From Xestospongia muta (taxonomy: Eukaryota > Porifera > Demospongiae > Haplosclerida > Petrosiidae), in the NCBI GenBank assembly GCA_963693285.1, contig OY848921.1:6771229-6835228 (forward strand): a stretch of 64,000 nucleotides of DNA, in the 5' to 3' direction. The position numbers and the translations under genes are program-made. A model generated the notes under the pieces. That model was not told the origin of the DNA. It did not search any database and saw only the letters and a program-made list of their open reading frames with translations. Each line of letters begins with the position of its first letter. Positions within the stretch are counted from its first letter, which is position 1. Shown in pieces: positions 1,359 to 64,000 of the stretch.

Positions 1359-4300
1359 ATGCCTATAAGAGAGCTCTAGCAGAGGGAGAAATGGATGTAG
1401 CATATGGACGTGTTATGTTACTTGGTTCAGCTGGTGTAGGAAAAAGTAGCTTAAAGCGATCATTGATGAAGTTACCATGGCAACCCCACACTACCAGCAC
1501 CATCATATCTGATGTCAGTTGTGTTCGACCATTTGGACATGAGTGGTATGCAATGAGCCTGGAAGATACTGACGATAAATGGAGAGAAGTAACCTTTGAA
1601 GATGAGATAGAAGAAATGGCACAGCTACTTGCTATGGTATATAAAGATTGTTCCAGTCCTAGATCTGTGCTAAATACAGTGGCAGCCTCAGTACTCTACC
1701 CTATAGCTGCCATGATGAGGGCTTCATCCTTATCTTCACAGCTGGTTCAAGATATAGAGACCACCAAAGTCAATGAAATTCTTTCAAAAGCTATAGCTCG
1801 TTCCAAGCATATATCCACAGATGTTCTTAGCAATATTAAACCTCAGCCATTTTTACACATCTGGGATTGTGGTGGTCAGCCTGTTTTTCTTGAAATCCTC
1901 CCTGCCTTCCTTACTTCTCGTACATTGTTCCTCCTCCTGTTTGATGCTTCTAAGGATCTTAATGAAATGTGGCAGTCTGTACAGAATATTGAGGGGAGGC
2001 AAATTTTTGGTGAAAAGGAAAACATCAGCACACTTGATCTGATGCTCAACTGGATGGCTAACATTCATGGTCACCTCATTCATCGTGAGAAAGAAGGCAG
2101 TCTTTGTGAGTACCCTCGTATGTACTGCATTGGTACCCATGGTGATGTCCTAAAGACCAATGAGAAGAAGAAAGCAATTGTAGATGAGCTGGAGTCCAAC
2201 TACAAAGATAAAGCATTTATGGAACTTGTTAAAGAAACTTTGATTATCGACAACACCACTTCTGGTAAAGGAAAATGTGAAGATCCAAATCTCATCAAGC
2301 TACGTACAGCTATTTGTCAGTTCACATATGAAAAGCTCATTGTCAAGACTCCAGTTAGCTGGGTTCTCTTTCGAAAAATAATTCAAATGTTTGAAAAAAA
2401 TGTAATTGATCTTAAAGAAGCTCATGCTATTGGAGTAGCTTGTAAAATACCTCATGATGATGTTCCAAAGGTCCTCCTGTTTTATCATGATCTAGGAGTA
2501 GTGCTGTTCTATCCCCACATTACTGGTTTGAGAAACAAAGTTATCATCAATCCCAAATGGTTTGTGGAAACACTTGGAAAAGTGTTCACACTAGATGGAC
2601 AAGCTGATGGACAAACAAGACTAATGTGGACATTACTACAGGAAAAAGGCATTCTAGTAGAGCCATTTTATATGTCCCTTTGGAAAGAATGTAGAGCAGA
2701 CCTTAGTCCAGAAGCAATAATTGAACTTTTAGTTCATTTTCGTCTTGCTGCTAAAGTTACTACTAAAGAATATTATGATCGAACAGTCAAGCAGTATTTT
2801 TTGCCAGCCACACTTCCAACTTTCAAGGGAGATCCCAACAAAGCTCTACCAAGTTATCGTAATCAAGCTACTCCACTACATATCACTTTTAGCACAAAAT
2901 TTGTACCTCCTGGTTTCTTCACACGTCTCATTACCTCTCTGGCTAGTAATCCATCTTGTGAGCTTATGTTTAAATGTGGTATATACCGCAATCGTGTCAC
3001 TTTTGTATATCACAAATCAGATGATCACATCATAATCACTGATCTCCACTATGCCATACAAGTTGATGTATTACGATATGCTCCAGCTAGCTTAGACATT
3101 CCATCCTTTGATACAATATGTCAAGAACTATTGAGTGTTCTTAAAAGTTGTGGAGATCTCGTTGAACAAACTCTTACAGGTCATTGGGGAATGATGAATG
3201 AATTTACTCAATCTGTCTCTATTGAGAGGGAATTTCAATATGTATGTAGATCAAAAGAATGTGATCAATCTGAGGTTCATTACTTCAATATATCTGTAGA
3301 CAAGTGTTCCATTCACTGTGAAAAGAGTATGTATAGATCATATCGTAGACCAACTGCTAAGGAAAGAGTCTGGTTTGATGGATGGAATATACCAGAAGAG
3401 GTACAGTTCATGAGAGTTCATTATAATGTCTCAATGTATTCTTTATAGGCAGTATCTCTTGAATCATCATCACCTCCTGTAACCATGGTGTCTAGTGCTA
3501 CTGGTCAAAGTTGTCAGCAAGAGTTTCTTGAAGGTGAAATAGGTAAGTCAGTCTATGCATGTGAATTTTTATGGGGCCATTACAACTTATGATAAATATA
3601 TGTACATAATCAGATTAATATTCTGTGGTCTTAATTAGTTTGAACATGTGTATAGTCATCAAATAATACCACCTATATTGTACGATATATAAGCTCAGAT
3701 CTACATTACACAATGTATTTGTCGTAGATATTTCTGACATTTTGTCAAAGGTTCATAGTGAGTATAATCAAATAATGTACTAACAAAGAATAAATATTTG
3801 TAATTTGAATGAAGCCATTCATTTTGCATATTGTGACAGATATTACTGAAATGTTTTCTTTTTTGTTATTTATTGAATTTTCTTCTTTTTTTCCATTCAG
3901 GTACATCTATTACTTATGATAGAGGTGTAAAGCGTAAAGCTGAAGGTGAGTGTTAACTTAATGCAGCACTTTTTATTTATATTTTGTCTCTTCACTATAG
4001 ATGATACTCTAAACTGTGAAATATGTAGAAGAACATTAATTCGATGTACTGATACTATTGTTCAGTCAAATATTGAACCCATTTCCTTAGCAAGAAAACT
4101 GTATTCAGAAGAAATTATTTCTGAGGATGTTTACAAAATTGTTAAAGACAAGAAAACAGGAGATACTAATGCAGATCGTCTTGACTATATTCTTGATGAT
4201 CTAAAGGATCGTGTCAAATACAGTTCTAGCGCCTTCATTATTTTCCTGGATATTTTGAGAGATGATAGTTTAAATCAACAAGACTTAGCTGACAAAATAA

Positions 4301-18859: not shown

Positions 18860-19660
18860 TTGTAATGACATTCCATGTTACTATGTGTCTTTCTTTCTTT
18901 TATGTTCCTGTAACAATATCCTGTATTCTCATTGCATAACAATTTATAGAAAGTAAGTATGTATAATGGCAATTCATGAGATCTTGTTTACATTTTATTC
19001 TGATTGTGTATTTTTAATAATATTTTTATAATAATAAAGTTATTAACTGTTATTGATAGTCCTTGTTACTGTGTCATTATTTTTTTATGTTCTATAATGA
19101 CAAACTATAATCTAAATCTAACAACTACTTATAGTCGGTCAGTATGTACGATATTAATTCATGTGAACACATTTATGTTTTATCTTGATTGTGTAGTTGT
19201 TTAAAATAATTAAAATTATTAGGTTTTAATGACAATCCATGTTACTCTGTGTCTTTCTTCCTTTTTATGTTCCTGTGGTAAAATTTATGCATATTCTCAT
19301 TGTCATATAAACTATTTATAGAGGGTAAGTATGCACAATATCAATTCTTATGATCAAAGTTAGTAGACTTTTATGTCAGTCCTTGTTACTATGTGTCTTT
19401 CTTTCCTTTTATGTTTCTGTAATGTCAAATATATATTCTTATTCTCACAACTATTTTACAGACTGTAAGTATCTACTATATTAATTCATGTGGTCACTTT
19501 TACATTTATTCTCATTATGTATTTGTTTATATTAATTCAAGTTATTAACTTTTAATAACTGTCTTATATGTTTTTTTTTCTTTTGATGTTCCTGTAATGG
19601 AATGCCTATGCTCTTATTATCACAACTATTAATAAAATGTAAGTATGAACAATGTAAATT
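18860..19660 (+). repeat. Array A: 5-unit degenerate array of 3-nt microexon candidates
   Basis: Five diverged units share CCTTGTTACTATGTGTCTTT, a TTTATGTTCCTG block, TCTCATT and then acceptor-triplet-donor. The triplets are AAA (18950-18952), TCG (before GTCAGT, about 19134), AGG (about 19320), ACT after TTTACAG (about 19464) and AAT (about 19636), where the acceptor AG is changed to AA. The first four would encode K, S, R, T. It lies upstream of a 16-nt exon at 20250, in the same order as array B. Confidence 0.7.
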
Positions 19661-25200: not shown

Positions 25201-25227
25201 AACAAACTTTACAAGAAACTTTTCCAT

Positions 25228-36518: not shown

Positions 36519-39500
36519 ATGGATTTGGAGTTGTCATTGATGAACCAAATACAGCCACTATTACTAGATGAAGTAATAAAGCAAGACATCGAAATAGGCC
36601 GTGGTACGTACGCTACTGTGTTCGAAGTACAAGTTCATGGGCTAAAATGTGCGGGTAAGCGATTGCTTCTCGAATCCGTGCTGCAACAAAATGACAAGTT
36701 TAAAAAGAAATTCGTTGCTGAGTGTTTGCTGCACAGCTACCAACGTCATCCTAACATAGTCCAGTTAATTGGAGTGTGTATTACACCAGAGCCAACTTTA
36801 GTAATAGAGTATCTTCCAATGAATCTAAGTTGTTGTTTGGAAACTCACCAAGATCTTCCAGAGTGGATAAAATCAAGTATTCTTTATGACATTTCTAAAG
36901 GCCTCAATTTTCTTCATAATCAGAAAGCCTCTATAGCTCATTTTGGTGTGACAAGCAACAATGTTCTTCTCACTGCTCACCTTCAGGCTAAAATTACAGA
37001 TCTCTGTGTTTCGAGACTATTTAAGGAGATATCAACTGACAGTGTTGGCTTGATCTCTGATGACACAACCTCTAACCACTTAGCATTTATGCCACCAGAA
37101 TATTTCACTGATCATACATCATGTACTACCAAATTTGATATATTCTCCTTTGGTTGTATTATGATACATGTTTTAAGTCAAGAGTATCCCAATCCATCAG
37201 AAAAGTTTGCCGATAGCTTCATTGATACTGCTATGACTGAATCTAGCTTTACTCAAATCTCTGAATGGGAACGTCGTGAACACAATCTTGCTGATGTGTC
37301 ATCTCATCATCCACTCTTACCGCTCATAGAGAATTGCTTGGATAATGATCCAGAAGAAAGACCTCAAATATCTGAGGTAATAAAGATCATTGAAAATGCA
37401 TCATCACCTATACCGTCTCCGTATAGTGATGGAATAATAGCATTAATGGAAACTCTGAACAAAAAAGACAGCCAAGTCAGGGAGGCACGCAAAGCTGTCA
37501 AGACCAAAGTTAATGACCTACAGGAGATACTAAATGCCAAAACAAGATCTGTTACTCGACTTGAAAATGCTGTAGAAAAAACAAAGAAAGAGTGCAATGA
37601 CTTAGTTACAGAGAAACAAGAAGAGATCAGTCGTCTTCAAAGTGAAGTCAGTAGTAACTTAGCTACAATCAATGATCTCAAAGAAAAGGCGGCAACACAG
37701 GAGAACCAAGTTAAGTCATTAGAAAAACAAATGGGTCTACAATCTACTGTTATTGAAGAACTAGAACAAAAAGTGCAAAAGAAAGATGACAACTTATTAA
37801 CAATGGAAGGAGATCTTGCAGAAAAAGAATCAAAGATAGATGAACTTAGGAAGATAGCCTCAAATGTAAAATCACAAACTGATCTCAATAATGAACTTCA
37901 ACAAGAAATGAAGGTAATGTTGGAAAACCAGGAGCGACTTCAGGCAATTACATTTAATCAACAAGCTCAAATTGACAGCCTTCATCAACAATTGGATACA
38001 ACAACAGCCAACAATGTCCTATTAGAGACTACCAAGAATAACTTAATTCAATTACAAGATACTATACTACAAGACAAGGCAGATATCATTGACCATCATC
38101 AAGCAGAAGTGACTGCTCTTAGAGCAGCCAATGACCTAACTGCTGTCAGACAACAAGCTTTAGAGTTAGAGATAAATATACTTCAAGAAGAAAACAAACA
38201 ACTCACAGAGTCTACAGTCTCTCTCAAGGAAAGTCTCGATACCACAATGAGACACATGAAAGAACAAACTGACCTTGTTAAGAAATTATCTCCAACACAA
38301 GATAGACTGCTAGAAGCTGTAGCTAACATAAACATCCATGGTAAATAAAACAATAGTTTTTCAATTTTATAATTATTGTGTCTTGTGTTTAGGCCCACCT
38401 TTATCTCAACAAGAGAAAATAATTCAGTCAATGATGAAGCAAAGACTAATAGAAGGAGACTCATGGTATATACACTAATTGTTAAATACATTACTTTAGT
38501 CATTCTACTGTAGGTGTCTTGTCAGTACCCTGTGGTTTGAAAAATGGAAAGCATATGTCAAGAGTGCCACTGGAACTGGAGTTGTTACTGATAGTCCTGG
38601 TCCAGTTACTAATTTCATGTTGTTAGAACGTAAAAATCATCAACGCAGTCTTAAGGAGAATTTGGATAGAGGTACACATTACATACTGGTTCCTGAGATA
38701 GCCTGGGATCTGTTGATACAGTGGTATGGATTAAGTGAGAAGTCCACCTACATTGCAAGGTTAGATTTGTTTGTGTCTTGTGTCAAATAATCCAATTATG
38801 AAGTTTATACTACTGAGACTGACCATGTTGATATAATATTGTATAACCAATACCTATATGACTGCTTAATTACTTCATGTGATCTCATGTAACATACTAT
38901 GTTACATTTTAATATAATTAAATGATCTTTACCATCTGCTATAAGTTGTAAAAATTCAAAGACATGCTATCACAGAATTTATAGTGGAGGTGTATCCATT
39001 ACATATCCATGTAACACTAAGTTCTGGCAAAACATTAAGACCATATACAATTCAACGAAGTGATAATGTTGGTAAGTTATTTAACATATCTCTCCTACTA
39101 GTCAATAATACTATATTATATGTAGCTTATGTGATGGAGAAACTCCGTAAGAAGTACAATGTAGGAGATAGCATTGAGACCAGACTATGGTTATGTCATG
39201 AGAGTAATAAGACTATACTAAAACCCACAGACACTATGGGATGTAACCAATCACATTATTCAGTAGAACCTAATGATGTAAGTACACTGTTCAATAATTG
39301 ATAATACACTTTTACATTAAATATAGACACTGTTACTTGAGACTAAGATTGGTGCTTGGTCAATACAGGAGTCAACTAGTAATGGACACATATTCAATAA
39401 ACCAAAAGAAGGTATATTAACAAATATAACTGATATTAGTTAACAAGTAATTGATGTGTGACCTCCCATTTATCAAAGTTGTATCTAACCTTTAACCACA

Positions 39501-40219: not shown

Positions 40220-43143
40220 TTAGGCTCTGTCTGATGTATCTCTAGATTGATAGACCACACCTCTTTCTCTTAACTCATCTAGCACATCTTCAGGAAGTTC
40301 TCCCGATACTGATATTGCATAACATGCCTTAGTAAATTTATCTAAAGATAAAGAAATTGATGACATTATAAATACTTAGTAAATTAAATTAATCATATTA
40401 GAAGAGGTAATCATATAGACAAATGCTTATATTAAAGATCAGCAAATGAATCGTGTTGAGCCACACCCACAAAAGCACATACAATTATCAACAAATGTCA
40501 AATGCATTTCTAAAATGTCTCAACAATAAAACAGACTATATCAAATATATATATATATATAATATTATTATTTCCTAAGAAATAGTTTTGTAGACTCTAT
40601 ATCATGTAGAAGTAATTTTTAATTTTGAGTTTGCTATGAGCCTAAATGAGAGAACATTATCCAATCCCTACATAGGGTAGTGCTACCATCTACCTAATGA
40701 TATATACCACTGGTTACTTATGTAGTAAATACTAATAATACTTACCTATTCTCTGCCATTTAGCTACCCAGCTATCTTCATTACCCATCATAGCTATCAT
40801 CCTAACAAGAGATGCAATATAATATTATCATCATTAAGTTTAATGATGATATAAGTTTAATCTTTTTTTCATTTGTAATAATTTAAAAATAATAAACTCT
40901 CACTACATTCTTGTACAGATATAGGCAATTTCAAAGAATGCATCATTTCTTATTATTCTTTTGTCAAATGCTTTTAAAATAAAAGTGGAAATATTTGCAG
41001 GCCATGGAGTCAAAATTCACCATTATTATTAGAAATGAACAGACATTAATGTATTTTGTATATTTAATCTTATTAATTGTTATACGTCATTGTCTAGAGA
41101 TTTAAGTTTTTGAGTATCTCTGTAATGCTTTTCTCTGTGGACATAGACAGTGACTTCAACTATATTAGTACTGCTATTAACAGATACAAGTCAAGCAATA
41201 ACAACAATCATCTGTATAATAATGATATAGTATGTATCAAAGGATTGTGTATGTGACTTTCTGATTTGAGTAGGACTATCATGTGATTGTAGTGTAGGAG
41301 TAAATATTTACAGGACATTAGAGTCATCGCTACACTATTGAATATCTGAGCATAAAATAACACAATAGAACTAACCCTCTATTTCTCTCCTTATCCTTCA
41401 AGCACACATATACATACTACTAACAAACTATTATATAGGGATGATCCTAATGTCCTGTATTTATTTGTTTTCCTTTAGTGTTGTTATTTATATTGTATGA
41501 CCATCCTTAAATTTTCATTAATTTCTTGTGATAAATGGTATGAAGAGATTAATATTTTCTGTAAAAATATTTAAACTCTCCATAGATTTGTAGTGGCAAG
41601 GGATTTATCATTTATCATTTATCAAAAGCATTATCATTGACAATGATGGTTTTTACCCACATAGTAAGTAGGATATACAATGTATACTGTTGTGAGTTAA
41701 TTTATTAGTGCTATCTGAGAGGTCCAAAACAAGACAGATTTGTATACGAAATTTCAATAATTTTTCACTGATTTCTAGCCCTGTGTACAGATATAAAATG
41801 TTTTTGCCAATGATTTCAGACTAAGATTTCTGATTTAAAACTGAAAGTTTAAATTATTATTATTATGACAGACGATCTAAAGTTAGCTGTCAGTTTACAA
41901 CAAGAAGAATATTAAAGAAGAGTATATTCTGAAAGCTCTGGTGCTATAGGTTTAGAATATGTGGAGGTAAAATCAGAGTTATTAGCAGTAAAACTAGACT
42001 AGAAAAGCTTGGAGAAAAAGTAGTATAGCTTCAAAGAGAAGAGAAAAACGCTGATAAAGAACTAAGTCCTCAATTAGAAAGTGACGAAGTTTTAGCAAAA
42101 AATCTGACAGAACAGTTAATGAAGGAATTTAAAGACAGTCAGATGAATGTGTCATTACAGATTGAATCCGATAGAAAATTGCCGAAGATTTAAATAGGTT
42201 TCTAAACTCATCTGTCAAGGATCGTAACACAGTGATTGCTTCTATTAAGACAATATCTGTTAAAAAACCAGCTTCTCCTACAACTAGTCGGAATAAAAAG
42301 ACTGCTAAAAGAAGGAAAATTGATGTAGTGTCGGCTTAAAACATTGGTTTAAGACATAGTTTAGTAGCAAATTATAAAGAGATGATCCTAATGTCCTGTA
42401 TTTATTTGTTTTTCTTTAGTGTTGTTATTTATATCATGTAACCATCCTTAAATTCTTGTTAATTTGCTGTGATAAATGGTATGAAGAGATTAATATTTTC
42501 TGTAAAAATACTTTAATCTCCTCGTAGATTTGTGGTGGCAAAGGACTTATAATGGCATTTTCATTGACAATGAGGGTTTTTAGAAACAAAGTAGGTAAGA
42601 CACAATGTACACTGTTGTGAATGAATTTATTAGTGCTGTCTAAGGAATCTGAAACAAGACAGAAATGTGTACGAAATTAATTTCAAAAATTATTCTGTGA
42701 TTTTAAACATCTTCTGATTTCTAAGCTCTGTGTACAGATATAAACAGTCTTTGTTAGTGATTTTTGACTAACATTTCTCATTTAATATTGAAAGTGTACA
42801 AGATGTCAGCTTCAATTATTACATCAGACTCCTAGGTGCATGATGTATTTGATATTATGTATTACATGTAGGTATTTATATGTTATATTTGATAGACTTA
42901 CCCATCAAAATTTGAACTAGTACAATCATTGACTTTTCCTCTGTTTCCTTTGAGATGAAGATATCTCTCACAATTATCACATCCAGTATAGAGAAACTGA
43001 TCAAATGATAGATATTATTATCACTAACATTGTAGAGTAGACTTCTACTTCATAATACATCACTAAAAACTTACCTTTACCATAGAACATAGCTTACAAG
43101 CTCGTAGTCCTCGAAAATCCTTAGGAATAGATTTTAAAGACAT
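40220..43143 (-). CDS. spt4: Transcription elongation factor SPT4
   Basis: Four exons on the minus strand: 43143-43075, 42996-42902, 40801-40746 and 40341-40220, giving 113 aa (human SPT4 has 117). The protein begins [20 protein letters not shown] and has the zinc-finger pairs C16-C19 and C29-C32 (GCDNC), then [35 protein letters not shown] and the C-terminus [23 protein letters not shown]4 pairs with SPT5 (DSIF) to control RNA polymerase II pausing and elongation in the nucleus. Intron 1 is 78 nt. Intron 2 (2.1 kb) hosts an inserted element. With the only AG acceptor, four residues of the usual loop between VK and F are skipped. The 5' end faces the microexon gene across a short divergent promoter. 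A near-identical copy lies at 61089-64000. Confidence 0.92.
41440..42796 (+). mobile_element. Inserted element with about 410-bp direct terminal repeats around a dead reading frame
   Basis: Direct repeats 41440-41848 and 42381-42796 (both starting at GATGATCCTAATGTCC) are roughly 80-85% alike by eye. Between them, 41865-42339 holds an intronless broken frame starting [13 protein letters not shown] and ending [14 protein letters not shown]. It has several stops and at least one frameshift (length 475, not a multiple of three). The N-terminus looks like a ubiquitin-interacting helix and the C-terminus like a nuclear localisation signal. This could be a processed pseudogene with a duplicated 3' part or an LTR-like element; the family was not recognised. 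It lies in spt4 intron 2, antisense to spt4. Confidence 0.5.
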
Positions 43144-43274
43144 GGTGGAAATTTTTAACCCGTTGAGTTTGTACCGCCTTGAACCACGCCTACAAAAATC
43201 TACACAGGAAGCGCACAACAAAACAAGAGAAGGGCAAAAATTTGCACTACTGTAAATTTAGTTCAAGAAAGGAA
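43144..43274. promoter_or_regulatory. Divergent promoter of spt4 and the microexon Roc-COR gene
   Basis: It lies immediately upstream of the spt4 ATG (43143, minus). On the plus strand the shared block CCTTGAACCACGCCTACAAA (43174-43193) is followed by a stretch free of ATG that ends at a good donor, AAGGAA|GTAAGT (43275). I read this as a non-coding first exon for the plus-strand gene. Absence of an ATG in the leader fits the start codon being the first microexon at 43814. Confidence 0.55.
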
Positions 43275-43715: not shown

Positions 43716-46700
43716 GTTGGTTTTAATGACAGTCCTTGTTCCTATGTGCCTTTCTTCCTTTTTATATTCCTGTAATGAAAAATCTATACTCTCATTGTCA
43801 CAACTATTTATAGATGGTACGTATGTGCAATATTCATGTGATCTCATTTACATTTTACCTTACTTGTGTAGTTGTTTATATTAATTAAAGTTATTAGGTT
43901 GTAATTACAATCTTTGTTACTATGTGTCTTTCTTTGTTTTTTTATGTTCTTATAATGACCAATATATGCTCTCATTGTCACAACTATTTATAGGCGGTAA
44001 GTATGTACAATGTCAATTCATGTGATCTTATTTGCAGTTTATCTTAATTGTGTATTTGTTTATATTGATTATTTAAATTGTGTAGTTGTTTATATTAATT
44101 AAAGTTATTAGCTTTTAATTACAATTCTTGTTATTATATGTCTTTCTTCTTTTTTATGTTCCTATGACGACAAACCTATACTTTCATTGTCACAACTATT
44201 TTTAGGGTGTAAGTGTGTACAATGTCAATTCATGTGATTTTATTTGCATTTTGTATTAATTGTGTATTTGTTTATATTAATTAAAATCCTTGTTACTATG
44301 TGTCTTTCTTTGTTTTTTATGTTCCTATGACGACAAACCTATACTCTCATTGTCACAACTATATATAGTTTGTAAGTATTTACAATGTCAATTCATGTGA
44401 TCTTATTTGCTTTTTATCTTAATTATATGGTAGTTTATATTAATTAAAACTTATTAGGTTTTAATTACAATTCTTGTTATTATATGTCTTTCTTCTTTCT
44501 TATGTTCCTATGATGACAAACCTATACTCTCATTGTCACAACTATTTATAGTTTGTAAGTGTGTACAATGTCAATTCATGTGATCTTATTTGCATTTTGT
44601 ATTAATTGTGTAGTTGTTTATATTAATTATAGTTATTAGGTTTTAATTAAAATCCTTGTTACTGTGTGTCTTTCTTCTTTTTTATGTACCTATGATGACA
44701 AATCTATACTCTCATTGTCACAACTATTTATAGAGGGTAAGTATGTACAATGTCAATTCATGTGATCTTATTTCCATTTTGTATTAATTGTGTAGCTGTT
44801 TATATTAATTAAAATCCTTATTACTATGTGTCTTTCTTTGTTTTTTATGTTCCTATAATGACAAACCTATACTCTCATTGTCACAACTATTTACAGTGGG
44901 TAAGTATTTACAATGTCAATTCATGTGATCTTATTTGCTTTTTATCTTAATTATGTGGTAGTTTATATTAATTAAAAGTTATTAGGTTTTAATTACAATT
45001 CTTGTTATTATATGTCTTTCTTCTTTCTTATGTTCCTATGATGACAAACCTATACTCTCATTGTCACAACTATTTATAGTTTGTAAGTGTGTACAATGTC
45101 AATTCATGTGATCTTATTTGCATTTTGTATTAATTGTGTAGTTGTTTATATTAATTATAGTTATTAGGTTTTAATTAAAATCCTTGTTACTATCTGTCTT
45201 TCTTCTTTTTATGTACCTATGATGACAAATCTATACTCTCATTGTCACAACTATTTATAGCAGGTAAGTATGTACAATGTCAATTCATGTGATCTTATTT
45301 GCATTTTGTATTAATTGTGTAGTTGTATATATTAATTAAAGTTATAAGGTTTTAATTATAGCCCTTGTTACTATGTGTTTTTCTTTTTTTCATATTCCTA
45401 TGATGACAAACCTATACTCTCATTATCACAATTATTTATAGAAGGTAGGTATGTGCAATGTCAATTCATGTGATCTTATGTACATTTTATCGTAATTCTA
45501 TAGTTGTTTATATTAATTAAAGTTATTAAGGTTTAATTATAGTCCTTGTTACTATGTGTCTTTCTTTGTTTTTTATGTTCTTTTGATGACAAACCTATAC
45601 TCTCATTGTCACAACTATTTATAGGAGGTAAGTATGTACAATGTCAATTCATGTGATCTCATTTGCATTTTATCTTAATTGTATAGTTGTTGTTCTTATT
45701 AACTAAAGTTATTAGGTTTTAATTGCAGTCCTTGTTATAATATGTCTTTCTTTCATTTTATGTTTCTATGATGATAAACCTATACTCTCATTGTCACATC
45801 TATTTATAGAAGGTAAGTATGAATAATGTCAATTCATGTGATCTTATTTGCATTTTATCTTAATTGTGTATTTGTTTATATTAATTAAACTTATTTGGTT
45901 TTAATTACAATTCTTGTTATTATATGTCTTTCTTCTTTTTTATGTTCCTATGATGATAAACCTATACTCTCATTGTCACATCTATTTATAGAAGGTAAGT
46001 ATGTACAATGTCAATTCAAGTGATCTTATTTGCATTTTATTTTAATTGTGTATTTGTTTATATTAATTAAAGTTATTAGGTTTTAATTGCAGTCCTTGTT
46101 ATATTATGTCTTTCTTTCTTTTTATGTTCCTATGATGACAAACCTATACTCTCATTGTCAAAACTATTTATAGAGGGTAAGTATGTACAATGTCAATTCA
46201 TGTGATCTCATTTGCATTTTATCTTAATTGTGTATTTGTTTATATTAATTAAAGTTATTAGATTTTGATTAAAATCTTTGTTACTATGTGTCTTTCTTTG
46301 TTTTTTATGTTTGTATGATGACAAACCTATACTCTCATTGTCAAAATTATTTATAGATGGTAAGTATGTACAATGTCAATTCATGTGATCTTATTTGCAT
46401 TTTATCTTAATTGTGTATTTGTTTATATAAATTAAAGTTATTAGGTTTTAATTGCAGTCCTTGCTATATTATGTCTTTCTTTTTTTATGTTCCTATCATG
46501 ACAAACCTATACTCTTATTGTCACAACTATTTATAGCTGGTAAGTATGTACAATGTCAATTCATGTGATCTTATGTGCATTTTATTTTGATTGTGTAGTT
46601 GTTTATATTAAATAAAGTTATTAGGTTTTAATTACAATCCTTATTACTATGTGTCTTTCTTTGTTTTTTGTGTTCCTATGATGACAAACCTATACTCTCA

Positions 46701-47880
46701 TTGTTACATCTATTTATAGCCGGTAAGTATGTTCAATGTCAATTCATGTGATCTTATGTATGCTTTATTTTGATTGTGTAGTTGTTTATAATATTTAATG
46801 TTATTAGGTTTTAATTACAGTCCTTATTACTATGTGTCTTTCTTTGTTTTTTATGTTTCTATGATGACAAACCTATACTTTCATTGTCACAACTATTTAT
46901 AGGAGGTAAGTATGTACAATGTCAATTCATGTGATCTTATGTGCATTTTATTTTGATTGAGTAGTTGTTTATAATAATTAAAATTATTAGGTTTTAATTA
47001 TAGTTCTTATTACTATGTGTCTTTCTTTGTTTTTTATGTTCCTATGATGACAAACCTTTACTCTTAATGTCACAACTATTTATAGGAGGTAAGTATGTAC
47101 AATGTCAATTCATGTGATCTTATATACATTTTATTTTGATTGCGTAGTTGTTTATAATATTTAAAGTTAATGGGTTTTAATTACAGTCCTTATTACTATG
47201 TGTCTTTCTTTGTTTTTTATGTTCCTATGATGACAAACCTATACTCTCAATGTCACAACTAATTATAGGAGGTAAGTATGTACAATGTCAATTCATGTGA
47301 TCTTATGTACATTTTATTTTTATTGCGTAGTTGTTTATAATATTTAAACTTATTAGGTTTTAATTACAGTCCTTATTACTATGTGTCTTTCTTTGTTTTT
47401 TATGTTTCTATGATGACAAACCTATACTTTCATTGTCACAACTATTTATAGGAGGTAAGTATGTACAATGTCAATTCATGTGATCTTATGTGCATTTTAT
47501 TTTGATTGAGTAGTTGTTTATAATAATTAAAATTATTAGGTTTTAATTATAGTTCTTATTACTATGTGTCTTTCTTTGTTTTTTATGTTCCTATGATGAC
47601 AAACCTTTACTCTCAATGTCACAACTATTTATAGGAGGTAAGTATGTACAATTTCAATTCATGTGATCTTATATACATTTTATTTTTATTGCGTAGTTGT
47701 TTATAATATTTAAACTTATTAGGTTTTAATTACAGTCCTTATTACTATGTGTCTTTTTTTGTTTTTTATATTCTTATGATGACAAACCTATACTCTCATT
47801 GTTACATCTATTTATAGAGGGTAAGTATGTACAATGTCAATTCATGTGATTTTGTTACATTGATTGTGTAGTTTTTTTAT
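43716..47880 (+). repeat. Array B: 23 tandem ~183-bp units, each with a 3-nt microexon
   Basis: Each unit has a pyrimidine tract (GTGTCTTTCTTTGTTTTTTA), TCTCATTGTCACAACTATTTATAG, a triplet, then GTAAGTATGTACAATGTC. Spacing between triplets is 180-185 bp, apart from two 163-bp units and one of 212. Triplet starts: 43814 ATG, 43994 GCG, 44206 GGT, 44369 TTT, 44552 TTT, 44734 AGG, 44897 TGG, 45080 TTT, 45261 CAG, 45442 AAG, 45625 GAG, 45810 AAG, 45992 AAG, 46174 AGG, 46357 ATG, 46537 CTG, 46720 CCG, 46903 GAG, 47086 GAG, 47269 GAG, 47452 GAG, 47635 GAG, 47818 AGG. Donors are GTAAGT in 21 units, GTACGT in the first and GTAGGT in the tenth. All acceptors end in AG. No triplet is a stop. Confidence 0.93.
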
Positions 47881-50800
47881 ATAAATTCAATGTCAGTGAA
47901 AGGCACTAAAGTGCCAAACCTTGCTGCAGTTTCTAAGTTATTTATAAATACTATGCCAGTTAGGCCTAGCTTTGATGTTGCTAGGTAGCATTGCAAGAAA
48001 ATTTATTAACATTCTAGAAGGTGTGGTCACAATTATCAATATTTCATATACAAAAGTTATTGTAACTTGAAGGTGAAACATTCTTTGGAAATGTCCTGTA
48101 GTACGCATATAAGTCAATATATTGTCTATTAGTAGTATTTTTTTAGTGCTTTGAGACGTTTCCTGAATGTGTCACTTCAATCGAAGTCCGTGTACAATCT
48201 TGAAAACACTTTTCAGAACTTTTATGATGATTGCTTTGACCAACGGCCTTCTGTCTTCTGATGCGTATTCCTAAGATTGTCTACAACATACTAAAAAGTC
48301 TCCACATTAATTTTTTTACTTTTTGAGAAATGGCAACTTGACCTCTGCAGTCTGAAAATTCTTTTGCAAGTTTTAAGCTTTCGTTTTCCTTGACAATGAT
48401 GTTCTTGATACTACTATTGTAAAGTCCACACGTTTTATATTCATTGCTAAACGTTGGTAGCTGCTAATGCTTCGCTTGCCAAATTATAGCAGTTCAAAAA
48501 CAATCCCCGGTAACAGGCAATGCAGACACACACACACACACACACTGACAGACTACAGTAACCTTGCTATGCGCCCAAGTACAGTGAGGTTAATGAAATC
48601 AAACTTAATAAAATGACACATATAGCAATGAATGAATATTATTATCGTGAGCGCTTTGAAGTGGGTGTGATTGTTGGAAACTTCTGTGTTTTTAACCCAA
48701 AGAAAGATATTTAAGCAGTTACATAGCTTGTATTAATTCTCAAATTATAATGCACATACATTCATTCCCTTATATCAACAACAGTATCATATTGGGTTGA
48801 TATTTAGAAACATTTTTCTTGATCATATTGTTGTTTGTGTAATGAGTGTATTACAACAAACCTTGTCTGTATGTTATGTAATGTATTTATCATATGTTTG
48901 ACTAATTATTTTAGTTGTCAATTAAGACCTTACCTTTGTCTATTGTCAGACTGTAGTGTCAATTAGTGTTAGTCAGTCCTTTTCATACTTGGTTTGTATC
49001 TCTTTTGTTGCCTTCCTCTTGTTTATTGTTCTTTGTTCTGTGCACTCTATTTAAGTTCACTGTGTTTTCAAAGTTATGTGTGTTCTATTATTGTGTTTGT
49101 TGTTATAACAAGAGACAGTCTGCATTTGTATTAATTGAAAATTATTAGGTTTTAATGACATTCCTTGTTACTATGTGTCTTTCTTTCTTTTTATTTTATG
49201 TAATGATAAACTTATATTGTAATTGTCATATTCTTTCATTGAGCTTGCTAATACTTTGATTGGTGTCTTAGAACATATGCATATTGTAAACTACCTTATT
49301 GGAAATATTGTTAACTCTCATTCCTTTCAGTATGGACAAAGATTACAGTACTTGCTTTGTGTGTGTGTCTGTCTGTTAACAGTCATTGTACTATGTACTG
49401 CTTGAACTCAATAAAGACAGTGTCTTACAGCTGCATTAGTTGGCAGTGAGATGAAAACGTTCTATAAATTCTTTCTAGCTAACAAGCTACTAAAGCACAG
49501 AAAAGGTGGAAGAGTTGATTGGTACAATAAAACTACAATAATTTTCTAATAAGATGCAGGAATTTTCATAGAAATGCTTCATTTTGAAGTTATGAAGTCA
49601 AAAAACAGCCACTTGCAAACATATGATTGTTAGTGACACCTGTTATGATTAAATAGTTACCAGTCCTATGGTTTTTATCACCATATAGCACAGCCATTAA
49701 TTTTTATTTAGCAAGTTCTCAGGTAGTGGCAGTATAACTATAACTAACATCATTCAGTATAATTCAGCCACCACTGCAGCAAGGGTTCTGCATTTTTGAA
49801 CTAAGCTTTTCTTATGTCTTTTATACTTCTTTAAAATACCATTTGATAATTTGTTCTTAACAGTTATTACAAATTTACAGGATACTTAAATTGACTTGTT
49901 GTTTATTTTTTATGTCAACCTTTTACCTGCTAATGTCAAACGGAACATATACATGTATAGAGGGAACTTGAAAGAGGTAAAGTATTTATATATTATTTAG
50001 TATTAGATTATAGTGCTAGGAAAGTTAGCAATATGATGTTGCTTCAAGTATACCTCTATAGAGTTACCATTGTCAGGGTTTCGTTTAGGGGTGTGAGGGC
50101 ATTCACTCCCCCTCTTGGAAATTAGGTTAGCCATTTTTTCAAGGGTTAATTGGATGTAATGACTACAGAACTGAAACTCAACACAAGGAATAAGCAACAT
50201 AAGATAGCTTTAGGCTAAATACAAGGAGAATGTACAGTTTTTAACCTAAACAGCTATTCTTCTACTCTTTCTGTTTCATGTATCTACAATGTCTTCAAGG
50301 TCACTATCCAGCAAAGTGTCAGGAGATTCAATGGCTATTTTCATAAGGTGTGAAAGGCTGGTGTTACTTAAGCGGTTGCGTTGACAAATTTTTATTAACT
50401 TCATCTGATAGAAGCTTCTCTCTACAAAGGCAGTAGCAATGGGAATGGACAGACTGATGGTTGTAAATGTGTTCAAGTTCAGAAACATACTTTTAAGCAT
50501 TTCATTTGTTGCTAATTCCTTCAATATGCAGAAATATGGTCATCTCATCATGTCATTTGAAAACCACAAATGATCTGGAAATGTGCCAGAAGCGATCTCA
50601 GAGGGTCTAAAATTTTAAAATTTCTGACCGGCATGCCTCCAGACCCCCCTAAAGAGCGCACTGTCACACAGTCCCTTCACCTCCTCCCCCCCCCCCAATT
50701 TTCTCTAAATATTATTTGCCCCCTTGTCCATTTTTCTAAATGAAACCCTGATTATTTGTCTGCCATTGAGTTTTACTATTTAGTTGAAGTATAATATCAT

Positions 50801-53800
50801 CATCAGCAATATTGTTTATATCATTATTCTTATATCTTGTATCTGTGTAACTAGTCCTAATAACGTCTGTTAACTGGGTCTCAACCTTTCAATTTTCAGT
50901 TGAGGCATACCACAAATTACATTTGATGTTATTATAGTGTTGAATTTTGATAATAATATTGTATTACCAAATTATTCAGAAGCCTGATATTCCTATTGCA
51001 CATTATTTAAGTTAATGTAATCATTTCCTGTCACAGTATTTAATACCAAATCTTCATTTTTTGTGAATTGATGCTTCACAAATTTTAAATACCACCTATT
51101 TTCATTAACCAATAAATCTGTAGATAATAAAACAATTGTGACAATAATTAAATCCCTTAAAATGGTGACAGTTACTAGTCAAGTTTAAACTCTTGCAAAT
51201 TTTATCATTTTATTAACTCTTCAGGTAGATGCTTTGAAGCATGATTGATCACACCCATATTATAGCATTTGTAGTTATGAGGTAATCCTTTTGGTTAAAA
51301 CAATATTAATTGGAACAACTGTCATGACTTATAATATTAAATGAAGTGTAATTATTATTGAAGTTTGGTCAGAAACACAATGGTTTAGTAAATTTATATT
51401 CAATTAACAATGGTGGTTAAATTTATCTGATAGATGCCTATAAGAGAGCTCTAGCAAAAGGAGAAATGGATGTAGCATATGGACGTGTTATGTTACTTGG
51501 TTCAGCAGGGGTAGGGAAAAGTAGCTTAAAGCGATCGTTGATGAAGTTACCATGGCAACCTCACACTACCAGTACAATTATATCTGATGTCAACTGTTTT
51601 CGACCATTTGGACATGATTGGTATGGTACGAGCCTGGAAGATATTGACGACAAATGGAGAGAAGTAACCTTTGAAGATGAGATAGAAGAAATGGCACAGC
51701 TACTTACTATAGTATATAAAGATCGTTCCAGTCCCAGATCTGTGCTCAATACAGTGGCAGCCTCAGCACTCTACCCTATAGCTGCTATGATGAGGGCTTC
51801 ATCCTTATCTTCACAACTAGTTCAAGATATAGAGACCACCAAAGTTAATGAAATTCTTTCAAAAGCTATAGCTCGTTCTAAGCATATATCCACAGATGAT
51901 CTTAGCAGTATTAAACCTCAGCCATTTTTACACATCTGGGATTGTGGTGGTCAGCCTGTTTTTCTTGAAATCCTACCTGCCTTCCTTACTTCTCGTACAT
52001 TGTTCCTCCTCTTGTTTGATGCTTCTAAGGATCTTAATGAAATGTGGCAGTCTGTACAGAATATTGAGGGGAGGCAAATTTATGGTGAAAAGGAAAACAT
52101 CAGCACACTTGATCTGATGCTCAACTGGATGGCTAACATTCATGGTCATCTCATTCGTCGGGAGATAGAAGGCAGTCTTTGTGAGTACCCTCGTATGTAC
52201 TGCATTGGTACTCATGGTGATGTCCTAAAGACCGATGAGAAGAAGAAAGCAGTTGTAGATGAGCTGGAGTCCAACTATAAAGATAAAGCATTTATGGAAC
52301 TTGTTAAAGAAACTTTGATTATCGACAACACCACTTCTGGTAAAGGAAAACATGAAGATCCAAATCTCATTAAGCTACGTAGAGCTATTTGTCAATTCAC
52401 GTATGAAAAGCTCATTGTCAGGACTCCTGTTAGCTGGGTTCTCTTTCGAAAAATAATCCAAATGTTTGAAAAAAATGTAATCAATCTTGAAGAAGCTCAT
52501 GCTATTGGAGTAGCTTGTAAAATACCTCATGATGATGTTCCAAAGGTCCTCCTGTTTTATCATGATTTAGGAGTAGTGCTGTTCTATCCCCATATTACTG
52601 GTTTGAGTAACAAAGTTATCATTAATCCCAAATGGTTTGTGGAAACACTTGGAAAAGTGTTCACACTAGATGGACAAGCTGATGGACAAACAAGACTAAT
52701 GTGGACATTACTACAGGAAAAAGGCATTCTAGTAGAGCCATTTTATGTGTCCCTTTGGAAAGAATGTAGAGCAGACCTTAGTCCAGAAGCAATAATTGAA
52801 CTTTTAGTTCATTTTCGTCTTGCTGCTAGTGTTACTACTAAGGTATATTATGATCGAACAGTCAAGCAGTATTTTTTGCAGCCACACTTCCAACTTTCAA
52901 AGGAGATCCCAACAAAGCTCTACCAAGCTATCGTCTTCAAGCTACTCCACTGCATATCACTTTTAGCACAAACTTTGTACCTCCTGGTTTCTTCACACGT
53001 TTAATTACCTCTCTGGCTAGTAATCCATCTTGTGAGCTCATGTTTGAATGTGGTATATATCGCAATCATGTCACTTTTGTATATCACAAATCAGATGATC
53101 ACATCACACTCACTGATCTTCACTATGCCATACAAGTTGATGTATTACGATGTGCTCCAGCTAGCTTGGACATTCCATCCTTTGATACAATATGTCAAGA
53201 GCTATTGAGTGTTCTTAAAAGTTGTGGAGATCTCGTTGAACAAACTCTTACAGGTCATTGGGGAATGATGAATGAATCCACTCAATCTGTCTCTATGGAG
53301 AGGGAATTTCAATATGTATGTAGATCAAAAGAATGTGATCAATCTGAGGTTCATTACTTCAATATATCAGTAGACAAGTCTTCTGTTTACTGTGAAAAGA
53401 GTATGTATAGATCATATCGTAGACCTACTGCTGAGGAAAGAGTCTGGTTTAATGGATGGAACATACCAGAAGAGGTACAGTTCAGGAGAGTTCATTATAA
53501 TGTCTCTATATATTCTTTATAGGCAATGTCTCTTGAATCATTATCACCTCCTGTAACCACGGTGTCAAGTCCTACTGGTCAAATTTGTCAGCAAGAGTCT
53601 CTTGAAATAGGTAAGTCAGATCATTGTGTATATGAATTGTTATGTAACTTGTGATAATTACATGTACATAATGTTTTGTGGCCTTTATTATTTTGAACAT
53701 GTTTATAGTCATCAAAACTGGTTGGATTATTCCTATTACATAGTGAATACATATTGTATTTATTGTAGATATTTCTAGTGTTCTATCAAAAGTTCCTACT

Positions 53801-61088: not shown

Positions 61089-64000
61089 TTAGGCTCTGTC
61101 TGATGTATCTCTAGATTGATAGACCACACCTCTTTCTCTTAACTCATCTAGCACATCTTCAGGAAGTTCTCCTGATACTGATATTGCATAACATACCTTA
61201 GTAAATTTATCTAAAGATAAAGAAATTGATGACATTATAAATACTTAGTTATTAAATTAATCATATTAGAAGAGGTAATCATATAGACAAATGCTTATAT
61301 TAAAGATCAGCAAATGAATCGTGTTGAGCCACACCCACAAAAGCACATACAATTATCAACAAATGTCAAATGCATTTCTAAAATGTCTCAACAATAAAAC
61401 AGACTATATCAAATATATATATATATAATATTATTATTTCCTAAGAAATAGTTTTGTAGACTCTATATCATGTAGAAGTAATTTTTAATTTTTAGTTTGC
61501 TATGAGCCTAAATGAGAGAACATTATCCAATCCCTACATAGGGTAGTGCTACCATCTACCTAATGATATATACCACTGGTTACTTATGTAGTAAATACTA
61601 ATAATACTTACCTATTCTCTGCCATTTAGCTACCCAGCTATCTTCATTACCCATCATAGCTATCACCCTAACAAGAGATGCAATATAATATTATCATCAT
61701 TAAGTTTAATGATGATATAAGTTTAATCTTTTTTTCATTTGTAATAATTTAAAAATAATAAACTCTCACTACATTCTTGTACAGATATAGGCAATTTCAA
61801 AGAATGCATCATTTCTTATTATTCTTTTGTCAAATGCTTTTAAAATAAAAGTGGAAATATTTGCAGGCCATTGAGTCAAAATTCACCATTATTATTAGAA
61901 ATGAACAGACATTAATGTATTTTGTATATTTAATCTTATTAATTGTTATATGTCATTGTCTAGAGATTTAAGTTTTTGAGTATCTCTGTAATGCTTTTCT
62001 CTGTGGACATAGACAGTGACTTCAACTATATTAGTACTGCTATTAACAGATACAAGTCAAGCAATAACAACAATCATGTGTATAATAATGATATAGTATG
62101 TATCAAAGGATTGTGTATGTGACTTTCTGATTTGAGTAGGACTATCATGTGATTGTAGTGTAGGAGTAAATATTTACAGGACATTAGAGTCATCGCTACA
62201 CTATTGAATATCTGAGCATAAAATAACACAATAGAACTAACCCTCTATTTCTCTCCTTATCCTTCAAGCACACATATACATACTACTAACAAACTATTAT
62301 ATAGGGATGATCCTAATGTCCTGTATTTATTTGTTTTCCTTTAGTGTTGTTATTTATATTGTATGACCATCCTTAAATTTTCATTAATTTCTTGTGATAA
62401 ATGGTATGAAGAGATTAATATTTTCTGTAAAAATATTTAAACTCTCCATAGATTTGTAGTGGCAAGGGATTTATAAAAGCATTATCATTGACAATGATGG
62501 TTTTTACCCACATAGTAAGTAGGATATACAATGTATACTGTTGTGAGTTAATTTATTAGTGCTATCTGAGAGGTCCAAAACAAGACAGATTTGTGTACGA
62601 AATTTCAATAATTTTTCACTGATTTCAAACATTTACTGATTTCTAGCCCTGTGTACAGATATAAAATGTTTTTGCCAGTGATTTCAGACTAAGATTTCTG
62701 ATTTAAAACTGAAAGTTTAAATTATTATTATTATGACAGACGATCTAAAGTTAGCTGTCAGTTTACAACAACAAGAATATCAAAGAAGAGTATATTCTGA
62801 AAGCTCTGGTGCTATAGGTTTAGAATATGTGGAGGTAAAATCAGAGTTATTAGCAGTAAAACTAGACTAGAAAAGCTTGGAGAAAAAGTAGTATAGCTTC
62901 AAAGAGAAGAGAAAAACGCTGATAAAGAACTAAGTCCTCAATTAGAAAGTGACGAAGTTTTAGCAAAAAATCTGACAGAACAGTTAATGAAGGAATTTAA
63001 AGACAGTCAGATGAATGTGTCATTACAGATTGAATCCGATAGAAAATTGCCGAAGATTTAAATAGGTTTCTAAACTCGTCTGTCAAGGATCGTAACACAG
63101 TGATTGCTTCTATTAAGACAATATCTGTTAAAAAACCAGCTTCTCCTACAACTAGTCGGAATAAAAAGACTGCTAAAAGAAGGAAAATTGATGTAGTGTC
63201 GGCTTAAAACATTGGTTTAAGACATAGTTTAGTAGCAAATTATAAAGAGATGATCCTAATGTCCTGTATTTATTTGTTTTTCTTTAGTGTTGTTATTTAT
63301 ATCATGTAACCATCCTTAAATTCTTGTTAATTTGCTGTGATAAATGGTATGAAGAGATTAATATTTTCTGTAAAAATACTTTAATCTCCTCGTAGATTTG
63401 TGGTGGCAAAGGACTTATAATGGCATTTTCATTGACAATGAGGGTTTTTACCAACAAAGTAGGTAAGACACAATGTACACTGTTGTGAATGAATTTATTA
63501 GTGCTGTCTAAGGAATCTGAAACAAGACAGAAATGTGTACGAAATTAATTTCAAAAATTATTCTGTGATTTTAAACATCTTCTGATTTCTAAGCTCTGTG
63601 TACAGATATAAACAGTCTTTGTTAGTGATTTTTGACTAACATTTCTCATTTAATATTGAAAGTGTACAAGATGTCAGCTTCAATTATTACATCAGACTCC
63701 TAGGTGCATGATGTATTTGATATTATGTATTACATGTAGGCATTTATATGTTATATTTGATAGACTTACCCATCAAAATTTGAACTAGTACAATCATTGA
63801 CTTTTCCTCTGTTTCCTTTGAGATGAAGATATCTCTCACAATTATCACATCCAGTATAGAGAAACTGATCAAATGATAGATATTATTATCACTAACATTG
63901 TAGAGTAGACTTCTACTTCATAATACATCACTAAAAACTTACTTTTACCATAGAACATAGCTTACAAGCTCGTAGTCCTCGAAAATCCTTAGGAATAGAT
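61089..64000 (-). CDS. spt4: Second SPT4 copy, cut by the window edge
   Basis: Minus-strand exons 63864-63770, 61667-61612 and 61210-61089, plus the 3' part of exon 1 (64000-63943); the ATG lies outside the window. All splice sites and frames are intact. Differences from the first copy seen by eye include Met to Val at the start of exon 3 (GTGATAGCT), Ala to Val in exon 4 (AAGGTATGTTATGC), and AAA for the AAG codon at the exon 1 donor. Both copies carry the same inserted element in intron 2. The duplication is therefore young and both copies may be expressed. Confidence 0.9.
62306..63664 (+). mobile_element. Second copy of the direct-repeat element in spt4 intron 2
   Basis: Corresponds to 41440-42796. 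The dead frame is at 62733-63207. It reads [12 protein letters not shown] where the first copy has a stop (EEY then TAA), so the first copy has an extra lesion. The other stops and the frameshift are shared, so the element was already dead before spt4 was duplicated. Confidence 0.55.

What the first reader, a model, noticed from the sequence alone, without database searches (positions are those of the whole stretch)
43814..47820. Twenty-three consecutive 3-nt exons may encode the N-terminus of a Roc-COR GTPase
Seen directly: 23 tandem units in which a 3' splice site (usually TTTATAG) and a 5' splice site (GTAAGT) are exactly three bases apart. The first triplet is ATG and no triplet is a stop. 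In order they read MAGFFRWFQKEK then KRMLPEEEEER. They are in phase with the downstream 16-nt exon (RELER plus G), which is in phase with the Roc exon (DAYKRALAK), so the predicted run E-E-E-E-E-R-R-E-L-E-R-D is a continuous charged helix. The leader upstream has no ATG. I know of no described gene with a serial array of single-codon exons on this scale, though single 3-nt microexons are known.
Basis: partly seen in the sequence, partly recalled or inferred. Interest (0 to 1): 0.97.

Follow-up and report, generated by a model that had tools for sequence, protein, structure and literature searches.

The report
Protein tails written one-codon-per-exon
A likely sponge genome carries hundreds of head-to-tail repeats, each holding a single codon between two splice sites and none of those examined holding a stop codon, which are predicted to be spliced one after another into the variable front ends of a family of Roc-COR GTPases, a gene layout that our literature searches did not find described.

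Summary
In detail: 23 units at 43814-47820, each AG + three bases + GT, first triplet ATG, no stops. It is one array of a large set in one ~0.7-Mb cluster of the unnamed host genome. A scan of 319 kb (window plus fetched DNA) found 575 units; 0 of 575 triplets are stops, against 42.8 expected from base composition, and 0 of 268 after collapsing near-duplicates (14.7 expected). Triplet positions 1 and 2 are almost random (1.98, 1.94 bits) inside nearly invariant flanks. Imperfect donors are rarer where the codon does not end in G, as U1 pairing predicts. The other frames hold 10 and 53 stops. A 16-nt exon recurs in 11 copies, in phase with the Roc exon. Best reading: serially spliced single-codon exons writing hypervariable N-terminal tails. 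No transcript was available; splicing and serial inclusion are inferred. Against: the window's own Roc-COR exon has a one-base frame break, a few units are dead, and two arrays start without an ATG triplet (they have another candidate start exon).

The parts
43200..43274 (+). leader (5' UTR) exon ending at donor GAA|gtaagttg; 5' end not known
   Evidence: sequence; leader region 82-90% identical upstream of seven other arrays
43814..47820 (+). array of 23 single-codon exons, period ~183 bp, MAGFFRWFQKEKKRMLPEEEEER
43814..43816 (+). exon 1 ATG (M), donor GTACGT
43994..43996 (+). exon 2 GCG (A)
44206..44208 (+). exon 3 GGT (G)
44369..44371 (+). exon 4 TTT (F)
44552..44554 (+). exon 5 TTT (F)
44734..44736 (+). 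exon 6 AGG (R)
44897..44899 (+). exon 7 TGG (W)
45080..45082 (+). exon 8 TTT (F)
45261..45263 (+). exon 9 CAG (Q)
45442..45444 (+). exon 10 AAG (K), donor GTAGGT
45625..45627 (+). exon 11 GAG (E)
45810..45812 (+). exon 12 AAG (K)
45992..45994 (+). exon 13 AAG (K)
46174..46176 (+). exon 14 AGG (R)
46357..46359 (+). exon 15 ATG (M)
46537..46539 (+). exon 16 CTG (L)
46720..46722 (+). exon 17 CCG (P)
46903..46905 (+). exon 18 GAG (E)
47086..47088 (+). exon 19 GAG (E)
47269..47271 (+). exon 20 GAG (E)
47452..47454 (+). exon 21 GAG (E)
47635..47637 (+). exon 22 GAG (E)
47818..47820 (+). exon 23 AGG (R)
49961..49976 (+). 16-nt exon AGGGAACTTGAAAGAG (RELER + first base of D)
   Evidence: found at the same length in 11 copies by an indel-free pattern
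51434..53522 (+). Roc-COR exon; frame breaks by one base at about 52872-52917
   Evidence: Pfam Roc and COR-A; paralogue at 1361-3448 open throughout
1359..3448 (+). open Roc-COR exon of the preceding gene; its 142-unit array (FEDFEEEFEPP repeats) lies just upstream of the window at C5:6744135-6769905
18950..19638 (+). decayed mini-array, 5 units (AAA TCG AGG ACT AAT), one acceptor lost, one donor GTCAGT, beside a broken Roc-COR copy
63868..64000 (+). start of the next leader region; an ATG unit follows at C5:6835904 just past the window

Best explanation
The window holds 23 tandem ~183-bp units, each with an acceptor, one codon and a donor, and these are predicted to be spliced in series as single-codon exons that write the N-terminal tail of a Roc-COR GTPase. 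The tail would run MAGFFRWFQKEKKRMLPEEEEER, then RELER from the 16-nt exon, then the Roc domain. The likely mechanism is stepwise intron definition: each ~180-nt intron is recognised on its own, its acceptor joins one codon to the growing upstream exon, and the donor three bases on, which is strong enough (GTAAGT) to depend little on the codon, is then used for the next step. This is like recursive splicing except that three bases are kept at each step. Shown: 3-nt spacing, intact splice-site motifs, absence of stops, one open phase, in-phase downstream exons in paralogues, donor compensation. Inferred: that the units are spliced at all, that most or all enter one mRNA, and the order of steps. 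Across the cluster the tails appear to evolve by duplication of one-codon cassettes and of multi-codon blocks, with codons far more diverse than the introns around them.
For: 0 stops in 575 units against 42.8 expected from column composition; 0 of 268 after collapsing near-duplicates, 14.7 expected. Genome-wide, TTTATAGNNNGTAAGT has 778 forward and 19 reverse hits, control 11 and 10; the stop-triplet forms give 1 hit and 0, and that one is not in an array. Exon positions 1 and 2 carry 1.98 and 1.94 bits; each flank position from -40 to +34 is below 1 bit, and four of the next ten reach 1.0-1.3. AG in 571 and GT in 575 of 575. Frames +1 and +2 of the joined triplets hold 10 and 53 stops, frame 0 none. 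265 of 548 spacings are not multiples of three, so this is not a disguised long ORF. Scans that let the exon length vary gave three bases for nearly all units, the few others being alignment shifts. Donor compensation: 60 of 442 units ending in G have an imperfect GTAAGT, 3 of 128 of the others (Fisher P 9e-5; collapsed set 35 of 201 and 2 of 67, P 0.002). Paralogous arrays G3 and G5: up to the first amino-acid difference, 21 codons, 0 of 42 first/second positions differ and 3 of 21 third positions do, all synonymous (P 0.03; the cut is post hoc). The 16-nt exon recurs at the same length in 11 copies. In the 200-kb stretch five Roc-COR exons are open over all 695 codons and each follows an array. 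Arrays G6 and G8, which do not begin with an ATG triplet, share a candidate start exon (MAERNERPGL, MAERNKRLYL) before a gtaagtca donor in phase 0.
Against: No RNA evidence: the protein search returned ORFs without splicing information and some Amphimedon gene models; by eye none of the 120 listed shows a tail like these. The window's Roc-COR exon has a one-base frame break, so this particular gene may be dead or mis-assembled. Dead units exist inside or beside arrays: C5:6290326 lost exon and donor, 6422629 has GG for AG, the ATG unit of G4 (6357264) has TG for AG, 6338817 and 6401586 lost AG, and 6323708, 6364332, 6387124 and 6770090 are decayed or partial. G1 keeps a 52-unit array without stops although its Roc-COR exon is largely gone, and its first ATG is the third unit. 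The start exon of G6/G8 was found by a search that listed only phase-0 donors, and the two loci are homologous, so it is one weak observation. After codon 21 the G3/G5 comparison has 14 nonsynonymous and 3 synonymous differences and 3 unpaired units, in a stretch where unit alignment is doubtful.
Confidence: 0.83

Rival explanations
1. The triplets are real exons but are used alternatively: one or a few per transcript, chosen mutually exclusively or at random, so each gene makes many tails that differ by single residues.
For: Every array triplet is symmetric and in phase 0, so any subset keeps the frame. Near-identical introns would make acceptor choice easy to vary.
Against: Runs of the same codon (five GAG in the window) and 11-codon higher-order repeats (FEDFEEEFEPP) would be pointless for one-of-many choice. 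G8 ends in a coherent basic run PKKKRVRR across consecutive exons (NLS likeness recalled). No paired docking sites were sought.
Confidence: 0.1
2. The array is bypassed: the mRNA joins leader to 16-nt exon or starts at the Roc methionine, and the triplets are relics of an older coding array.
For: ORFs of relatives often start at MDVAYGR or at the P-loop methionine. The window gene has a frame break, and dead units exist.
Against: Relics would collect stops and lose splice sites; 0 of 575 stops, 571 of 575 acceptors AG and 575 of 575 donors GT. The decayed mini-arrays beside broken Roc copies, by contrast, have lost sites.
Confidence: 0.05
3. Mobile introns (introner-like) inserted at every codon of an ordinary N-terminal exon.
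For: Introns are near-identical while the bases between them are unrelated.
Against: Insertion at exactly every third base in one phase, up to 142 times in a row, with higher-order repeats of 11 units, looks like tandem duplication. Exact 21-base unit hits are all forward, and those listed (100 of 575, and 100 of 104 T-first) lie in one cluster of one contig.
Confidence: 0.02
4. Satellite DNA or assembly artefact without function; splice-like motifs by chance.
For: The arrays are tandem repeats.
Against: Greatest diversity confined to three bases between nearly invariant AG and GT, with no stops, one phase only and donor compensation.
Confidence: 0.01

Closest known systems
Schistosome micro-exon genes (MEGs)
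   Same: Small symmetric exons in series, used for alternative splicing that changes a few amino acids (passages of PMC4350168).
   Different: There, most of the coding region is made of very small symmetrical exons. Here the array exons are 3 nt, introns are tandem near-copies, and the array is only the N-terminal tail of a protein whose body is one large exon.
Isolated 3-nt exons (mouse Ncam, Drosophila troponin T)
   Same: A single codon used as an exon; shows that the spliceosome can do it (passages of PMC8042270).
   Different: Described there as a 3-nt exon of the gene, not as 23 to 142 in a row.
Recursive splicing at ratchet points (Drosophila Ubx, Bx, kuz)
   Same: Acceptor and donor side by side, stepwise removal (passages of PMC8605326).
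   Different: Ratchet points lie in long introns, look like zero-nt exons, and add no codon per step.
1-nt microexons of plant APC11 and VPS55
   Same: Extremely short exons with conserved strong donors GTRAGT (passages of PMC8831610).
   Different: Conserved sequence; no array in the passages seen.
Dscam-type arrays of tandem exons (recalled)
   Same: Tandem duplicated exons in one gene.
   Different: Dscam exons are ordinary in size and mutually exclusive.

Membership tests
ROCO (Roc-COR) GTPases | Roc domain followed by COR domain | tested here: met
   PF08477 43.1 bits (cut-off 27) and PF16095 47.3 bits (cut-off 35.3) in the window exon; same families in the open paralogue
ROCO (Roc-COR) GTPases | kinase on the same chain, as in LRRK (recalled; not needed for all ROCO proteins) | tested here: inconclusive
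   kinase ORFs lie several kb downstream of the Roc-COR exons; three of five paralogues in the 200-kb stretch have a stop at the aligned end of the exon, two read on; no transcript
Micro-exon genes (MEG) | small exons whose length is a multiple of three | tested here: met
   array exons are 3 nt in scans that let the length vary; the scan assumed 3 nt
Micro-exon genes (MEG) | most of the coding region in micro-exons | tested here: not met
   69 nt of micro-exons against a Roc-COR exon of about 2.1 kb in the window gene
Micro-exon genes (MEG) | isoforms by alternative splicing of the micro-exons | not testable with these tools
   no transcripts
Recursive splicing ratchet points | juxtaposed acceptor and donor (AG|GT) | tested here: not met
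   three bases lie between AG and GT in the units
Recursive splicing ratchet points | stepwise splicing intermediates | not testable with these tools
   needs nascent RNA
Mutually exclusive tandem exons (Dscam type) | one exon chosen per transcript | not testable with these tools
   needs transcripts; the order and repeats of codons argue against it

The most novel reading that the evidence does not exclude
A codon-cassette system: an animal gene family writes its N-terminal tails from tandem one-codon exons, and by adding, losing and swapping cassettes in the germ line, and by skipping them in RNA, makes a vast repertoire of tails on one GTPase body, possibly for self/non-self recognition. 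Units with identical flanks over 165 bases but different codons (GTG and TTT; CCG and AAT, all three bases changed; 2 of 59 identical-flank classes) hint at wholesale codon swapping, for example by short gene conversion or a directed process.
Probability: 0.25. Interest if true: 0.98.

Novelty: categorically new. Interest (0 to 1): 0.94.

Why it matters
If confirmed, a protein segment is encoded with one intron per codon, up to 142 times in a row in the arrays read here, far beyond the isolated 3-nt exons that are known. It gives a natural test bed for how the spliceosome handles exons too short to hold both neighbours at once, and shows a way for a gene to edit its protein one residue at a time. 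Gene callers and short-read aligners would be expected to miss it, so similar arrays may be hidden in other genomes. The diversity concentrated in the codons, with introns nearly constant, points to selection on the tails.

Tried and rejected
Tried without result: exact-pattern scans of viral contigs and bacterial/archaeal genomes found no such units; no other animal genome could be searched. The protein search for relatives found 673 proteins; of the 120 listed seven are named, all Amphimedon queenslandica, and by eye none of their N-termini shows a tail like these. P0116 has an acidic N-terminus, but its gene structure could not be seen. Whether unit ancestry predicts the codon between arrays: it does not (same codon 53 of 570, expected 53.6, leaving out G3-G5 links; with those links 104, expected 55.9).

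Rejected: satellite without function, chance motifs, and a disguised long ORF. The one genome-wide stop-triplet hit (C5:6938907) is a chance match outside any array. The two-, four- and five-base 'exons' reported by my first scans were alignment shifts; all resolve to three bases by eye.

Dropped or limited: the scan assumes a 3-nt exon and similarity to the consensus. A profile search found 33 further forward-strand hits: five valid units, three plausible further AGG units, seven dead or partial, four copies of a decayed fragment downstream of arrays, and 14 with E above 1; it also gave two reverse-strand hits with E above 1. The five valid ones were added and the two mini-arrays (10 units) removed for (570 units). 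205 of 575 exact hits lie in DNA that was not fetched. The genome-wide T-first list shows 100 of 104 hits, the lists the first 100 only. At least 29 of the 797 hits are on other contigs and are not array units of this cluster. The 16-nt exon was sought with a pattern that allows no indels.
Full report
WHAT IS THERE. The window is C5:6771229-6835228 of an unnamed 158-Mb genome in 28 contigs. The named relatives of its Roc-COR proteins among the 120 listed are all from the sponge Amphimedon queenslandica (7 of 7, 45-52% identical), so the host is probably a sponge; this is inference. The triplets read MAGFFRWFQKEKKRMLPEEEEER. Downstream lie a 16-nt exon at 49961-49976 and the Roc-COR exon from 51434, in the same phase.

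IT IS ONE OF MANY. The pattern ATTTATAGNNNGTAAGTATGT has 575 forward and 0 reverse hits in the genome and none in the reversed control; the 100 listed, and the 100 of 104 T-first hits listed, are on C5 between 6.23 and 6.89 Mb. I read 200 kb, 26 kb and 34 kb of that cluster plus the window. A scan of 319 kb of this found 575 units (a coincidence in number) in nine arrays and two mini-arrays: 52, 35, 59, 50, 58, 25, 123, 142 and 23 units, and 4 + 4. In this report G1 to G8 are the first eight in that order. Tails read, for example, MGNPFPFRRPRREPQPEPFPQLEPFLRPRRRPPPRPIRPRPPPRPIPTNE (G4, C5:6357264), MAWWDYTEGLSVTDPESPYYEDPEEKERKEREREERWREREREEEERRREREREEEERR (G3, 6323872), and a 142-codon array with the 11-codon repeat FEDFEEEFEPP that ends KKKRVRR (G8, 6744135) just upstream of the window's first Roc-COR exon. 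A second repeat family with a 202-bp period and similar ends gives 25 units, mostly CAG and CTG, at C5:6213752-6218793, preceded by an ATG triplet between AG and GTAAGT, and a further group of hits lies at 6604626-6617589; none of its 28 exact hits is a stop. Hits to ATG units and T-first units show more arrays that were not fetched.

WHY THE TRIPLETS ARE CODONS. (1) No stops: 0 of 575, expected 42.8 from the base composition of the three columns. Units are related, so I collapsed near-copies: 0 of 268, expected 14.7, P about 3e-7. Genome-wide, with looser flanks, there are 797 hits on both strands (the reversed control has 21, so some tens are not units), with one stop triplet, which lies outside any array. 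(2) One phase: joined triplets have 0, 10 and 53 stops in the three frames; 30 of the 53 come from the repeats of one array. (3) Diversity is greatest there: positions 1 and 2 of the exon have 1.98 and 1.94 bits; positions -40 to +34 around it have less than 1 bit each, and four positions from +35 to +44 have 1.0 to 1.3. No other three-base window from -60 to +42 that does not overlap the exon exceeds 2.9 bits, against 3.9 for the exon. (4) Splice sites kept: AG 571 of 575, GT 575 of 575; 568 of 570 AG in the nine arrays. (5) Donor compensation: when the codon does not end in G, the donor is almost always GTAAGT (125 of 128, against 382 of 442), also in the collapsed set (65 of 67 against 166 of 201, P 0.002). 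(6) Purifying change: G3 and G5 are paralogues; up to the first amino-acid difference, 21 codons, the only three differences are synonymous third-position changes (0 of 42 against 3 of 21, P 0.03). The cut is post hoc. Further on, in the E/R-rich block where alignment of units is doubtful, there are 14 nonsynonymous and 3 synonymous differences and 3 unpaired units. (7) Spacing: 265 of 548 unit spacings are not multiples of three, so the array is not an unspliced ORF.

THE REST OF THE GENE FITS. The leader region of the window recurs upstream of seven other arrays. The 16-nt exon recurs in 11 copies at the same length, with codons for RELER, RKLER, RDDER, KEDER or, read by eye, REHKR. The acceptor of the Roc exon, GATAG|ATGCC, is present in nine of nine copies looked at. 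In the 200-kb stretch five Roc-COR exons are open over 695 codons and each follows an array. G6 and G8 do not begin with an ATG triplet; both have a conserved stretch with MAERNERPGL or MAERNKRLYL before a gtaagtca donor in phase 0. That search listed only phase-0 donors and the two loci are homologous, so it counts once and weakly. G1 begins GAG CCG ATG, and its Roc-COR exon is mostly lost.

RESULTS AGAINST. There is no RNA or peptide evidence. The window's own Roc-COR exon is broken by one base near 52.9 kb. A few units are dead: 6290326 has lost exon and donor, and others have lost AG; 6422629 (tatgg) and the ATG unit of G4 (ttg) would need skipping or a noncanonical acceptor. An ATG upstream of the stated leader (43142) opens a 37-codon frame ending at 43253, which would be an upstream ORF if the transcript starts that far up. 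The window by itself would not have rejected chance by stops (1.4 expected).

HOW IT LIKELY WORKS. An exon of three bases cannot hold the acceptor and donor machineries at once (established knowledge), so exon definition is unlikely; introns of about 180 nt suit intron definition. I propose 5'-to-3' stepwise splicing: each intron removed adds one codon and places the next GTAAGT directly after it. The compensation between codon base 3 and donor fits use of these donors. Steps and completeness are untested. Array triplets keep phase, so skipping would change the tail without breaking the frame.

HOW IT EVOLVES. Blocks of units are duplicated (11-unit repeats at about 2013 bp in G8; a large repeat in G7). 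Between arrays, intron relatedness does not predict the codon (53 of 570 same, 53.6 expected, leaving out G3-G5 links), and pairs of units from different arrays with flank similarity score 0.90-0.95 share the codon in 13% of 712 cases. Within arrays, close units usually do share it: 84% of 1013 pairs at 0.95 or more. Among 59 classes of units with identical 165-bp flanks, 2 hold different codons, one with all three bases changed. Either codons change fast under selection, or introns are homogenised by exchange while selection keeps codons apart; short-tract conversion could do both. I cannot decide between these.

LITERATURE. None of the listings described a serial array of single-codon exons. 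Most subscription papers are not in the library. I saw passages only of PMC8042270 (3-nt exons in Ncam and troponin T), PMC8605326 (recursive splicing), PMC4350168 (schistosome micro-exon genes) and PMC8831610 (plant 1-nt microexons).

VERDICT. Transcript proof is the missing step. The architecture fails a defining feature of micro-exon genes (most of the coding region in micro-exons) and of ratchet points (acceptor and donor juxtaposed), so I file it as a new kind.

Noticed in passing
window 42870-43150, minus strand: A divergent Spt4-like gene (first exon [23 protein letters not shown], second [35 protein letters not shown]; Pfam Spt4 E 5e-13) starts next to the leader, and its first-exon region recurs with the leader upstream of seven other arrays: the arrays may use a duplicated bidirectional promoter.
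   Followed up: partly
window 13261-15156, 29080-30168, 36453-38348, 59759-60325: Protein kinase ORFs (two of the four tested, both Pkinase) lie between the Roc-COR genes; in the 200-kb stretch array, Roc-COR and kinase repeat about every 30-35 kb.
   Followed up: partly
window 52872-52917: One-base frame break in the Roc-COR exon relative to the open copy at 1361-3448.
   Followed up: partly
Roc-COR exons starting at C5:6372843 and C5:6403516 (in L023 and L026): In two of five open Roc-COR exons the codon where the other three have a stop reads Q, so the frame runs on.
   Followed up: no
window 20237-26936: Two broken Roc-COR copies with 16-nt exons (KEDER) and a decayed five-unit mini-array just upstream; a paralogous mini-array lies at C5:6272015.
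   Followed up: partly
C5:6744135-6769905 (L032-L034): Tail of 142 codons with FEDFEEEFEPP repeats and a basic end KKKRVRR that resembles a nuclear localisation signal (motif recalled).
   Followed up: no
window 55710-56126: 12-bp minisatellite CACCAACTACTC, about 35 copies, open in several frames.
   Followed up: no
window 49150-49260: A decayed fragment of an array unit downstream of the array; the same fragment recurs at three other places downstream of arrays.
   Followed up: no
G000 C1:14366655-14367868, C1:15162284-15167947, C1:15336941-15343696, C4:9511337-9560286: Small sets of AG-NNN-GTAAGT sites with the same triplet, spaced 284-630 bp in the first set and 2.5-23 kb in the others: perhaps 3-nt exons of other duplicated genes, or chance.
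   Followed up: no
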